Below the pieces are notes generated by a model, which worked only from the letters and a program-made list of their open reading frames with translations, was not told the origin of the DNA and did no database searches. 64,000 nucleotides of DNA from Anaerolineae bacterium (GTDB lineage Bacteria > Chloroflexota > Anaerolineae > Aggregatilineales > Phototrophicaceae): assembly GCA_022823945.1 (NCBI GenBank), contig JAJEBK010000017.1:1-64000 (forward strand), written 5' to 3'. Of this stretch, positions 60,033 to 64,000 are shown one piece after another (position 1 is the first letter of the stretch; every line of letters begins with the position of its first letter). A program made the translations under genes and the position numbers.

Positions 60033-60111
60033 CTCCGCATTGCAGCCTGGCATAGCGCGATTCCTGCGCTATAGTCCGAGAGGATTCGGTTTTTCTGTAA
60101 GGTGGCGTGGC

Positions 60112-61275
60112 GTGGCGATTCGATTTCGTTCCAGCACAGACGAGGCAACCAGGTCGGCGTTGGTGCAGTTGCAAGAAACCGTCGCGGCGCAGAATGCCCT
60201 GATCCAGGCACAGAGCGAGCAGATCGCCATTTTGCGATCCGCCAGCGAGGCGCAGGGCGGGCATATCAAAGCGATCAATGACCAATTGCAGCGGCAAGAT
60301 GCGCAGATCCAGGCGCAGCTCCAGCGAACCGCCGACACACAACAGCAGCTTTATGGCTACATCCAACGCGTTGTCGGCGCAGTCGTCCAGCATCAGAATG
60401 ACTTGCTGACACAATTGGGCGAGTCGCTGCAGGGATTGTCAGAGCAGCAAGCCGATACAGAGCCCATCCAGATCATCCAGGAAGAATTCCAGCGCCCCCC
60501 TGCTGTTGAGCCTGCGCCCCCTGCCAGAGCCGCTGATCTGGACGCGGTGTATGCGCCAGTCGTGGTTGAAGCCGATAACGCGCCTGGCACGCCCATACCG
60601 CCGCGCGACCCACTGGAAAAGCAGCTCAAGGTCATGCGCGCCTTCATTGACGCCGGCGACCGCTTTGTCGATTACATTGGCGAAGACCTGCCCAAAGCCC
60701 AGGTTAATCGCCTGGAAGAGCAAGCCAGGCTCGAGCGTCACAAATTCCATCCCTACAAGCTACGCCCAACGCCGACCGGACGCAAATGGTTCGAAGAAGC
60801 CACTATGCCGGATGACGCGCCGCAGCCAGACGACGCCGATACCCAGCCCTTGTCTGCCCTTGTGGACGAAGAGAAGGCTCCGCAGCACGATACCCTGGTC
60901 GGGCAAGTCACATTTGATCCCCTGGCAGACGAGGACGATATCCCGCCGCTGGATGCATTGGTCGGGGAACAAGGCAGCGACTCGGCCAAGCTGATAACCT
61001 TGCTGATGGGGCGCGGCTGGGCAGCCACAGAATCTGAATTGCAAAATGCTTTCCCGCGCAGCCAGTTCGTCAATGTCATCATCGACGAAATTAACGAGCG
61101 GGCGCAGGACGAAATCGGCGACAATCTCATCACCGACGAGAAGGGAAACTGGACGATTGAAGCGGACTATCGTCAGGCGCTTTTGAACTGCCTGCAGGAC
61201 GAGGCTTTTGAGGAAGCGCCGCAGATGAAACAGGAAGCTGGCGGCGCGGCGGTTGCAGAAACCGGAACGGAATGA
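60112..61275 (+). CDS. Coiled-coil protein with TerB-C-like C-terminal domain, first gene of the BrxD/helicase cassette
   Basis: Heptad-like LQETVAAQNALIQAQSEQIAILRSASEAQGGHIKAINDQLQRQDAQIQAQLQ; C-terminal SAKLITLLMGRGWAATESELQNAFPRSQFVNVIIDEINERAQDEIGDNLITDEKGNWTIEADYRQ resembles TerB-C; GTG start is a guess; ATGA overlap with next gene. Confidence 0.65.
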   Translation: MAIRFRSSTDEATRSALVQLQETVAAQNALIQAQSEQIAILRSASEAQGGHIKAINDQLQRQDAQIQAQLQRTADTQQQLYGYIQRVVGAVVQHQNDLLTQLGESLQGLSEQQADTEPIQIIQEEFQRPPAVEPAPPARAADLDAVYAPVVVEADNAPGTPIPPRDPLEKQLKVMRAFIDAGDRFVDYIGEDLPKAQVNRLEEQARLERHKFHPYKLRPTPTGRKWFEEATMPDDAPQPDDADTQPLSALVDEEKAPQHDTLVGQVTFDPLADEDDIPPLDALVGEQGSDSAKLITLLMGRGWAATESELQNAFPRSQFVNVIIDEINERAQDEIGDNLITDEKGNWTIEADYRQALLNCLQDEAFEEAPQMKQEAGGAAVAETGTE

Positions 61276-62600
61276 TGGACAGAATCCCCAAACGCCGCAA
61301 GGTTTCGCAAGCCATCTTGCAGTCGCTCGGCAGTGGGCTCGTGCCGCGCAAAGGGGTCGAGCATATCGCTATCGGCCGCGAGGCAGAACTGACCGAGCTG
61401 CGGAATGACCTGGCTATCATTTTCGACGGTGGCGCGGCTTTTCGCCTGATAGTCGGGCGATATGGCGCTGGCAAAAGTTTTATGCTGCAACTGCTGCGCC
61501 ATCATGCGCTCAATCAGCGATTCGTGGTGGCGGATGCCGACCTCAGCCCGCAGTGCCGTTTGACCGGCTCCAAAGGCGAAGGGCTGGCGCTCTATCGCGA
61601 GCTGCTGGGCAATTTGTCCACAAAAACGCGGCCGGATGGCAAGGCTTTTGGCGCGTTGATCGAAAAGTGGCTTAGCAACCTGCAATCACGGCTGGCGCGG
61701 GATGGCATCGCCCCGGACTCGGACGAATTTGACCGCAAGCTAAACGGACTGGTGCATCAGGTGCTTGGCGAGATCGAAACGATGATCCACGGCTACGATT
61801 TCGCCAATGTGCTGAATGCCTATACGCGCGGGCACCGACAGGGCGATGACGAACTCAAGGCGGCGGCGCTGCGTTGGCTGCGTGGCGAATATCACAGCAA
61901 GTCGGAAGCGCGGCGCGGGCTGCGTGGCGATGTGCGCGTGATGATCAATGATGCCACCTGGTACGACAATATCAAGCTAATCGCCTATTTCGCCCGGCAG
62001 GTCGGCTATCGCGGCTTGATCATCTTCTTCGACGAAGCCGTCAACCTGTCCAAGATCAGCAACCGGACAGCCCGGGACAATAACTACCTGCGTCTGCTGG
62101 CTATGGTCAACGATACACTGCAGGGCAATGCCGAGCATCTGGGCATCTATATCGGCGCGACGCCAGAAGCCGTGACCGACCGTCGCCGCGGCTTCTACAG
62201 CAATGAAGCGCTGGAGACACGACTGCGTGAAAGCCGCTTCAGCGCGAAAGGGCTGCGCGATCTATCGGGTCCGTTGCTCCGTCTGGAGATGCTGCGTGAA
62301 GATGAACTGCGCCGGCTGCTGCAGACAGTGCGGGATATTCACGCCTGGCATCATCGCTACGAAAGCCGCGTGGATGACCGCGCCATCAACCTGTTCCTGG
62401 ATGAAGTGCAGGGGCGGGTGGGCGCAGACAGCTTGCTAACCCCGCGCGAAGTGCTGCTCGACTTTGTCTCTCTGCTCAATCTGCTGCGTCAATATCGCCG
62501 CCAGAGCTTTGAGTCGCTGCTGGGCAGAGTCGAATATGAAACTGGCGCGCCACCCAAAAAAGCAGCGGTTGATCCGCTATTCGCCGACTTTGCCATCTGA
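61272..62600 (+). CDS. BREX-type BrxD-like P-loop ATPase (DUF2791 family)
   Basis: GLVPRKGVEHIAIGREAELTELRNDL, FRLIVGRYGAGKSFMLQLLRHHAL (Walker A), VVADADLSPQCRLTGSKGEGLALYRELLGNLSTKTRPDG, GLIIFFDEAVNL (Walker B). Confidence 0.92.
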   Translation: MMDRIPKRRKVSQAILQSLGSGLVPRKGVEHIAIGREAELTELRNDLAIIFDGGAAFRLIVGRYGAGKSFMLQLLRHHALNQRFVVADADLSPQCRLTGSKGEGLALYRELLGNLSTKTRPDGKAFGALIEKWLSNLQSRLARDGIAPDSDEFDRKLNGLVHQVLGEIETMIHGYDFANVLNAYTRGHRQGDDELKAAALRWLRGEYHSKSEARRGLRGDVRVMINDATWYDNIKLIAYFARQVGYRGLIIFFDEAVNLSKISNRTARDNNYLRLLAMVNDTLQGNAEHLGIYIGATPEAVTDRRRGFYSNEALETRLRESRFSAKGLRDLSGPLLRLEMLREDELRRLLQTVRDIHAWHHRYESRVDDRAINLFLDEVQGRVGADSLLTPREVLLDFVSLLNLLRQYRRQSFESLLGRVEYETGAPPKKAAVDPLFADFAI

Positions 62601-64000
62601 TGAGCAGCAGCGCCTTTTATCAGCTTGCGCCTTTCGTTCAAGAGTTCATTTATCGCCATCGCTGGGACGAGCTGCGCCCCTTCCAGAGCGAGGCAATCGC
62701 CGCCATCCTGGGCGAGCCACAGCATGTGTTGGTCTGCAGCGCCACCGCCAGCGGCAAGACCGAAGCCGCTCTGCTGCCCATCATCACCCGGCTGCATGAA
62801 GACCCGCCCCAGTCCATCGGCGCGCTGTATATCGGTCCCTTGAAAGCGCTGATCAACGACCAGTTCTTGCGATTGAACGACTTGCTGGACGACAGCGGCA
62901 TCCCCGTGCAAAGCTGGCATGGCGATGTGCCGCAATCAAAGAAGGCGCGCTTTTTGCGGCAGGCGCGTGGCATCTTGCAGATCACGCCCGAATCGCTGGA
63001 AGCCATGCTGATGCGCCGCCACCACGAATTGACGCGGCTCTTCGGCGATCTGCGTTTTGTGGTCATAGACGAGGTGCATGCCTTCCTCGCTTCCGACCGG
63101 GGCCGCCAGGTGATCTGCCAGTTGGAGCGGCTCGGCCCGGGGCATTTTCGGCGCATTGGCTTGTCGGCAACCGTGGGCGAACCCAAGCTGGCGATGCGCT
63201 GGCTGCAGGGCAATACGCCGCTGCCTGTGCGCCAGATCGAAGCGTCAGGCCGTGCGCCGGTTGCGTTGGCGCTCGAATATTTTCGGTTCGAAGAGCCGCG
63301 CGACGAACAAGAAGATGCGCCGCAGACGCCATATCCCGCGGGCGAGCTTGCGCAACTGACTGTCGATCCGGCTGTCTATTATGCGCATATGCACAAGTTG
63401 ACCCAGCGCGCCACCAAGACACTGATCTTCGCCAACAGCCGCAATGGCGTCGAGCAGATCGGACTGGAGCTGCGCAAGATTTCCCGGCGCGACAAGCTGC
63501 CCGACTTTTACCATGTGCACCATGGCAATGTATCTGCACCGCTGCGAGAAAGCGCCGAAGCAGCCATGCGCGCGCCCGATGCGCCAGCTTGCGTCGCCGC
63601 CACCGTCACGCTGGAACTGGGCATCGACCTCGGGCAGCTCGACCAGGTTCTCCAGGTCAATGCCACGCACACGGTCAGCAGCTTTGTGCAGCGCCTGGGG
63701 CGTTCGGGCAGGCGCAGCGGCAGCGCCAGCAAGATGTTTTTCTATTGCAGCGAAGACGACAGCCCTGCCGCCCATATCGGCGAAGAAATGCCCTGGAATC
63801 TCTTGCAGACCATCGCCATCATCCAGCTGTATGCGGAAGACAAGTGGATCGAGCCGCCGCAAATCCCGCGCTTGCCGACCAGCCTGCTCTACCACCAAAC
63901 AATGAGCATCGTCTATGCGCATACCGAGCTAACGCCGCCGCAATTGGCCGAGCGCGTGCTGGGTTTATCGCCATTTGCCCAGGTTACGCAAGATCATTTT
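62600..64000 (+). CDS. Lhr-like DEAD/DEAH-box helicase (BrxHI-like), truncated by window end
   Basis: RPFQSEAIAAILGEPQHVLVCSATASGKTEAALLPII, FVVIDEVHAFLASDRGRQV, RRIGLSATVGEP, ATVTLELGIDLGQLDQVLQVNATHTVSSFVQRLGRSGRR; ATG overlaps the previous stop (TGATG); absent from the ORF track because it is open at the edge. Confidence 0.93.
   Translation, partial: MSSSAFYQLAPFVQEFIYRHRWDELRPFQSEAIAAILGEPQHVLVCSATASGKTEAALLPIITRLHEDPPQSIGALYIGPLKALINDQFLRLNDLLDDSGIPVQSWHGDVPQSKKARFLRQARGILQITPESLEAMLMRRHHELTRLFGDLRFVVIDEVHAFLASDRGRQVICQLERLGPGHFRRIGLSATVGEPKLAMRWLQGNTPLPVRQIEASGRAPVALALEYFRFEEPRDEQEDAPQTPYPAGELAQLTVDPAVYYAHMHKLTQRATKTLIFANSRNGVEQIGLELRKISRRDKLPDFYHVHHGNVSAPLRESAEAAMRAPDAPACVAATVTLELGIDLGQLDQVLQVNATHTVSSFVQRLGRSGRRSGSASKMFFYCSEDDSPAAHIGEEMPWNLLQTIAIIQLYAEDKWIEPPQIPRLPTSLLYHQTMSIVYAHTELTPPQLAERVLGLSPFAQVTQDHF

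What the first reader, a model, noticed from the sequence alone, without database searches (positions are those of the whole stretch)
60112..64000. Three-gene overlapping cassette: TerB-C-like coiled-coil protein, BrxD ATPase, Lhr-like helicase
Seen directly: gene 1 and gene 2 overlap by ATGA (61272-61275) and gene 2 and gene 3 by TGATG (62598-62602), so all three are probably translationally coupled. The ATPase reads as BrxD/DUF2791 and the third protein as an Lhr-family DEVH helicase. Established knowledge: BrxD and the helicase BrxHI occur in type 2 BREX, and TerB-N/TerB-C proteins have been associated with ATPases and helicases in predicted Ter-linked DNA-processing systems. No PglZ, PglX, BrxA/B or TerD/TerZ gene appears in this window. 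The partner is a long coiled-coil fused to a TerB-C-like tail with no obvious TerB core, which is an unusual architecture. Inference: a compact defence or DNA-damage module that may continue past the right edge.
Basis: partly seen in the sequence, partly recalled or inferred. Interest (0 to 1): 0.78.

Follow-up and report, generated by a model that had tools for sequence, protein, structure and literature searches.

The report
Shango defence cassette with stripped-down SngA
These three overlapping genes are a Shango anti-phage system, a known bacterial defence, but in a variant whose first protein has lost the TerB parts that usually characterise it, which suggests that its conserved tail is the part that works with the other two proteins.

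Summary
In detail: three overlapping genes, 60112-61275, 61272-62600 and 62600-64813 (the last ends 813 bases past the window). PADLOC models identify them as SngA, SngB and SngC, the known anti-phage system Shango. It is not BREX: SngB is far below the BrxD cut-off and the draft genome has no PglZ. The genes after SngC are metabolic, so no defence island follows. The cassette is patchy in its genus (12 of 34 genomes), and a relative has the empty site.

The new part is SngA. Canonical SngA carries TerB_N and TerB_C, sometimes TerB. This 387-aa form, found in four genomes, is only a coiled coil, a small winged-helix-like domain and the end of TerB_C. Other copies in the genus carry the non-nuclease part of a type IV restriction enzyme, with or without TerB_N. 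The tail is the only part all copies keep. The short gene is under purifying selection. One relative lost SngB and SngC but kept an orphan SngA, and there the tail alone shows relaxed constraint. I read SngA as a swappable front end docked by its tail. Function and mechanism are untested.

The parts
60047..60075 (+). promoter-like site CTGGCA-N17-TATAGT upstream of sngA
   Evidence: consensus match, 9 of 12; not above chance by count alone; the stretch is conserved in L031, L032, L033 and L082
60112..61275 (+). sngA, short TerB_N/TerB-less variant, 387 aa, GTG start
   Evidence: PADLOC SngA 4.4e-13, model 236-526 of 528; TerB_C end only; dN/dS 0.27-0.37 among four copies
60127..60450 (+). sngA: long single-helix / coiled-coil segment, residues 6-113
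   Evidence: AlphaFold2 pLDDT mostly 92-98 over residues 11-100
60613..60804 (+). sngA: small winged-helix-like domain, residues 168-231
   Evidence: AlphaFold2 H-H-E-E-H, pLDDT about 85-90; the same topology appears in the L040 model; the segment is present in L039, L040, L041 and absent from L038 and L045
60979..61212 (+). sngA: conserved TerB_C-end tail, residues 290-367, winged-helix-like topology
   Evidence: the only part shared by all SngA copies that carry different front ends; AlphaFold2 H-E-H-H-E-E-H
61272..62600 (+). sngB, BrxC/BrxD-family ATPase, 442 aa; Walker A GRYGAGKS (61455-61478), Walker B IIFFDE
   Evidence: PADLOC SngB 519 bits against BrxD 175 bits; Pfam 478 bits; motifs
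62600..64000 (+). sngC, Lhr/BrxHI-like SF2 helicase, 737 aa; continues to contig position 64813, past the window
   Evidence: PADLOC SngC 772 bits against BrxHI 452 bits; SATASGKT, DEVH, SAT, QRLGRSGR intact; full gene in L002:4600-6813

Best explanation
The cassette is a complete Shango anti-phage system (SngA-SngB-SngC) in a Chloroflexota genome. SngA is a reduced variant. Shown by sequence: SngB and SngC have intact ATPase and helicase motifs, and SngA keeps only a coiled coil, a small winged-helix-like domain and the TerB_C-end tail. Inferred: SngA is the recognition and assembly subunit. Its tail docks on SngB and/or SngC, its coil makes it oligomeric, and whatever precedes the tail (TerB_N/TerB, the front part of a type IV restriction enzyme, or here only coil and winged helix) senses phage DNA or its intermediates. 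Once recruited, the BrxC/D-type ATPase and the SF2 helicase act on phage DNA and hinder its replication. No nuclease domain was found in any of the three, so blocking or remodelling DNA is likelier than cutting it. My odds: Shango identity about 0.95; functional rather than decayed about 0.85; tail as the docking site about 0.6; the DNA-remodelling mechanism about 0.35.
For: Identity: PADLOC SngA/B/C, with gene order and overlaps conserved in 26 related loci. Shango was shown to restrict phages with the same TerB-like protein / ATPase / helicase trio (PMC10250203). Accessory behaviour: 12 of 34 genomes of the genus have SngB; G017 has an empty rpiA-cupin site where the window has the cassette; L033 carries the same variant at another site. 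Function kept: dN/dS 0.27-0.37 (A), 0.14-0.19 (B), 0.25-0.34 (C). Tail as docking site: it is the one constant part while front ends are swapped. In G014, which lost sngB and sngC but keeps an orphan sngA, tail dN/dS is 0.47-0.56 against 0.11-0.27 among intact copies, while the coil is unchanged. Of positions invariant in the four intact copies, 18 of 56 tail and 9 of 73 coil positions changed in the orphan, p 0.008; two control lineages gave p 0.58 and 0.56.
Against: No phage assay exists for this variant or, as far as I found, for any TerB_N-less SngA. The orphan comparison is one event over 78 codons. SngA's match to TerB_C is marginal (25.5 bits against a 26.3 cut-off). The inter-domain arrangement of the AlphaFold model is not reliable (pTM 0.27), and its PDB matches are winged-helix proteins only at non-significant E-values. 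Protein-protein contacts were not tested.
Confidence: 0.6

Rival explanations
1. Decayed Shango: loss of the TerB and restriction-enzyme parts has left a non-functional SngA remnant that is only carried along with sngB and sngC.
For: SngA has lost two front modules, and in one close relative, G014, the cassette is plainly decaying.
Against: Four copies, with pairwise dS up to 0.76, keep a full-length ORF with the same start, promoter-like site and overlaps; winged helix and tail have dN/dS about 0.2. The variant is present at two different chromosomal sites.
Confidence: 0.1
2. A piece of a type 2 BREX system (BrxD + BrxHI) with an accessory protein.
For: SngB matches BrxC_BrxD and SngC matches BrxHI strongly.
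Against: SngB scores 177.8 bits against the 350-bit BrxD cut-off. SngB and SngC models beat BrxD and BrxHI by more than 300 bits each. PglZ, the defining BREX gene, is not found in this 94%-complete genome, and PF10923 occurs once, here.
Confidence: 0.02
3. A host DNA-repair or stress module rather than phage defence: it sits between metabolic genes, not in a defence island.
For: Neighbours are rpiA, a cupin protein and sugar transporters. In five other genomes Shango abuts amino-sugar genes, in four of them by overlapping start and stop. In the wider literature TerB-domain proteins are tied to stress.
Against: Patchy presence, an empty site and several insertion sites inside one genus fit an accessory element. 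In the sister G030 an Eco57I-like modification-restriction gene sits right after sngC. Tested Shango systems protect against phage.
Confidence: 0.12
4. Shango in which TerB_N/TerB acts in trans: a separate gene elsewhere supplies the lost domain.
For: Domain loss from a complex is sometimes compensated by a stand-alone gene (general knowledge).
Against: No TerB_N match in the four short-variant genomes, although the same search finds it in G002, G020 and G059. The type IV restriction front module is also absent from G000 and G003. Genomes are drafts, about 94% complete.
Confidence: 0.05

Closest known systems
Shango (SngABC), from P. aeruginosa PA14 and E. coli (Johnson et al. 2023, PMC10250203; Millman et al. 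2022, cited there)
   Same: Same three components, gene order and overlapping layout; SngB and SngC match the Shango models over nearly their full length.
   Different: SngA is 387 aa against 569-842 aa in the copies with the canonical layout that I read, and lacks TerB_N and TerB.
SngA copies of the same genus carrying a type IV restriction front module (L035-L041, L045)
   Same: Same SngB/SngC family clade; the coil, in L039-L041 also the winged helix, and the tail align with the window's SngA.
   Different: They begin with the non-catalytic part (model 51-398 of 544) of PADLOC mREase_IV, without Mrr_cat; some also keep TerB_N. The window variant has lost all of this.
BREX type 2 BrxD and BrxHI
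   Same: Same ATPase and helicase superfamilies; SngC, BrxHI, DruE and DpdJ form one defence helicase clade (PMC12278908).
   Different: No PglZ; SngB is well below the BrxD equivalog cut-off.
Type IV modification-dependent restriction enzyme with Mrr_cat (L086, 577 aa)
   Same: Its front part is 30% identical to the front part of the L040 SngA.
   Different: It ends in an Mrr_cat nuclease; SngA has a coil and tail there instead, and the window's SngA has none of it.

Membership tests
Shango (SngABC) | BrxC/D-type ATPase SngB with intact Walker motifs | tested here: met
   PADLOC SngB 2.1e-156 over model 5-423 of 439; Walker A and B present
Shango (SngABC) | SF2 helicase SngC directly downstream | tested here: met
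   PADLOC SngC 1.7e-232 over model 1-715 of 720; motifs intact
Shango (SngABC) | SngA gene directly upstream, recognised by the SngA model | tested here: met
   PADLOC SngA 4.4e-13, but only model 236-526 of 528; ATGA overlap
Shango (SngABC) | SngA carries the TerB-type domain (TerB_N and/or TerB PF05099) | tested here: not met
   No TerB_N or TerB match in SngA or TerB_N anywhere in the genome; only the end of TerB_C. The descriptions of Shango speak of a TerB-like protein, and some TerB_N copies that PADLOC calls SngA also lack a PF05099 match, so I file this as a variant
Shango (SngABC) | restricts phages when expressed | not testable with these tools
   shown for PA14 Shango (PMC10250203), not for this one
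BREX | pglZ (alkaline phosphatase-fold protein) | tested here: not met
   PF08665 not found in the genome, with control genomes positive
BREX | BrxD equivalog | tested here: not met
   177.8 bits against a cut-off of 350

The most novel reading that the evidence does not exclude
SngA is a modular adaptor whose front end is swapped during evolution. TerB_N/TerB can be joined or replaced by the recognition part of a type IV (modification-directed) restriction enzyme without its nuclease, and can be dispensed with altogether. What defines Shango mechanistically would then be the winged-helix-like tail coupling any front end to the SngB/SngC motor, and not the TerB domain.
Probability: 0.45. Interest if true: 0.65.

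Novelty: new variant of a known kind. Interest (0 to 1): 0.45.

Why it matters
I found no published mechanism for Shango, and the TerB domain is the feature it is described by. A natural version without TerB_N/TerB, under purifying selection, says that the TerB part is not required in every Shango and points to the short tail as the core of SngA. The nuclease-free restriction front end in sister copies suggests that some Shango systems may have been re-aimed at modified phage DNA. Both ideas can be tested with small constructs. Models that demand TerB_N would miss this variant.

Tried and rejected
BREX fragment: rejected. Defence island past the right edge: read to the contig end, only metabolic genes and a large fibronectin-like/PT-repeat protein. 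Frameshifted or split N-terminus upstream of sngA: translated searches with nine long SngA proteins find nothing upstream of 60202. TerB_N or restriction front module in trans: not found. Weak PPK2 and ATG17-like matches of SngA lie in the coil and were discarded as coiled-coil noise. Solved relatives by sequence: none for SngB, a canonical SngA, or the profile of restriction-front SngA copies. Fold of the restriction-enzyme front module: AlphaFold model of L040, no significant PDB match. Viral contigs: no close relative of SngB. MukE, ScpB and JetABC fold matches are weak, with low probabilities and large rmsd, and I make nothing of them beyond the winged-helix shape.

Full report
What is there. 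The contig goes on to 75423. The third gene ends at 64813 and is 737 aa long. After it come a cupin protein, an alcohol-dehydrogenase-like gene, an ABC sugar transporter and a large fibronectin-like/PT-repeat protein, so nothing that looks like defence. Upstream lies rpiA, ribose-5-phosphate isomerase by my reading of the translation. The genome is a Chloroflexota draft of 3.5 Mb, by its near relatives.

What it is. PADLOC names the genes SngA (4.4e-13), SngB (2.1e-156) and SngC (1.7e-232), the three parts of Shango. Shango was described from P. aeruginosa PA14 and E. coli as a TerB-like protein, an ATPase and a helicase that together give modest to strong phage protection (PMC10250203). The BREX reading fails: SngB reaches 177.8 bits against a BrxD cut-off of 350, the genome has no PglZ while control genomes ring, and the BrxC/D family occurs once. 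SngC is related to BrxHI but closer to the SngC model, 772 against 452 bits. A published tree puts SngC, BrxHI, DruE and DpdJ in one defence clade of helicases (PMC12278908).

How it is distributed. In the genus, 12 of 34 genomes have a strong SngB; in 400 genomes drawn across the phylum, 10 including this one do. All 26 other loci read have the three genes in order. The window's copy and those of G003 and G030 sit at the same place, between rpiA and a cupin gene; the copy of G027 sits elsewhere. In G017 the rpiA-cupin place is empty. Five other genomes carry Shango beside amino-sugar genes. So it is an accessory element at several chromosomal places, without a defence island around it here.

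What is unusual. SngA here is 387 aa. In the canonical copies I read, on plasmids of E. coli, Sulfitobacter and Bradyrhizobium and in one other Chloroflexota, SngA carries TerB_N, TerB and TerB_C; the Paenibacillus plasmid copy and four other Chloroflexota copies carry TerB_N and TerB_C without a TerB match, and one (L062) shows only TerB_C. In this genus SngA comes in several builds. L035-L037 have the front part of a type IV restriction enzyme (PADLOC mREase_IV, model 51-398 of 544), then TerB_N and the tail. L039 has that front part, coil, winged helix, TerB_N and tail. L040 and L041 have it with coil, winged helix and tail. L038 and L045 have it with coil and tail. In a true restriction enzyme of this kind the rest is an Mrr_cat nuclease (L086); SngA never has it. 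The window variant has neither the restriction front nor TerB_N. Translated searches find no remnant upstream. On the SngB+SngC tree the four short copies form one clade (support 100), next to L035-L037 (93), inside the group with the restriction front, so that front was probably lost. TerB_N presence is scattered on that tree: gained or lost more than once.

Is the short SngA alive? Among the four short copies dN/dS is 0.27-0.37 for SngA, 0.14-0.19 for SngB and 0.25-0.34 for SngC. Within SngA the winged helix and tail are near 0.2, the coil near 0.4 and the last 25 residues near 0.6. The upstream promoter-like site and start are conserved. I conclude it is functional, though no assay exists.

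A natural experiment. G014, another relative, has at the same place an orphan sngA of 294 codons. Its winged helix is deleted, and sngB and sngC are gone; no SngB was found elsewhere in that genome. Its coil evolves as in intact copies (dN/dS about 0.27-0.37), but its tail has 0.47-0.56 against 0.11-0.27. Of positions that are invariant in the four intact copies, 18 of 56 in the tail and 9 of 73 in the coil changed in the orphan (Fisher p 0.008). The same count for the intact lineages G027 and G030 gives no difference (p 0.58 and 0.56). This fits a tail whose constraint comes from SngB and/or SngC. It is one event, tested after I had seen it.

Structure. AlphaFold gives the window's SngA a long helix 6-113 (pLDDT mostly 92-98), a winged-helix-like domain at 168-231 and a tail at 290-367 with the order H-E-H-H-E-E-H, again winged-helix-like. 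The L040 model, from another alignment, repeats both. PDB matches are mostly winged-helix proteins but none is significant. No solved relative of SngB or of SngA exists by sequence.

How it may work. SngA would be the recognition and assembly subunit: oligomeric through its coil, in contact with DNA through its winged helix or other front end, and joined through its tail to SngB/SngC. The ATPase and helicase would then act on phage DNA. No nuclease domain was found, so I favour blocking or remodelling over cleavage. Identity as Shango is nearly certain; the tail as docking site is supported indirectly; the action on phage DNA is inference.

Novelty. The system is known. The TerB_N/TerB-less SngA and the nuclease-free restriction front in sister copies are, as far as the held literature shows, not described. 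I rate it a new variant of a known kind. My sample outside the genus is small (9 Chloroflexota, 5 plasmids), so I cannot say how rare it is elsewhere.

Noticed in passing
L035-L041, L045 (SngA genes of the same genus): SngA is fused to the non-catalytic front part of a type IV methyl-directed restriction enzyme, with the Mrr_cat nuclease replaced by coil and tail; possibly a Shango aimed at modified DNA.
   Followed up: partly
L082:3208-4092 (G014): Orphan sngA left at the same site after loss of sngB and sngC, with the winged-helix segment deleted and its tail diverging.
   Followed up: yes
L032:12759-15860 (G030): An Eco57I/N6_Mtase gene (1033 aa, type IIG-like) sits on the minus strand right after sngC, between it and the cupin gene; absent from the window's genome.
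   Followed up: partly
L038, L039, L040, L041, L045: Shango lies immediately before an amino-sugar gene set; in L038, L039, L040, L041 and L045 the first of these genes starts within or next to the end of sngC (4-base overlap), so host metabolic genes may be coupled to the defence genes.
   Followed up: no
L061:739-6144 and L062:7069-11097: Very long SngA proteins (1801 and 1342 aa) in other Chloroflexota, with large front regions that match almost nothing in Pfam.
   Followed up: no
L034:10326-13958 (G059): SngA of 1210 aa with an unassigned front region of about 600 aa that, by eye, resembles a degenerate helicase, followed by TerB_N and TerB_C.
   Followed up: no
L002:12280-16761 (contig 70280-74761): A 1493-aa protein with fibronectin-like repeats and long PT-rich stretches near the contig end.
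   Followed up: no
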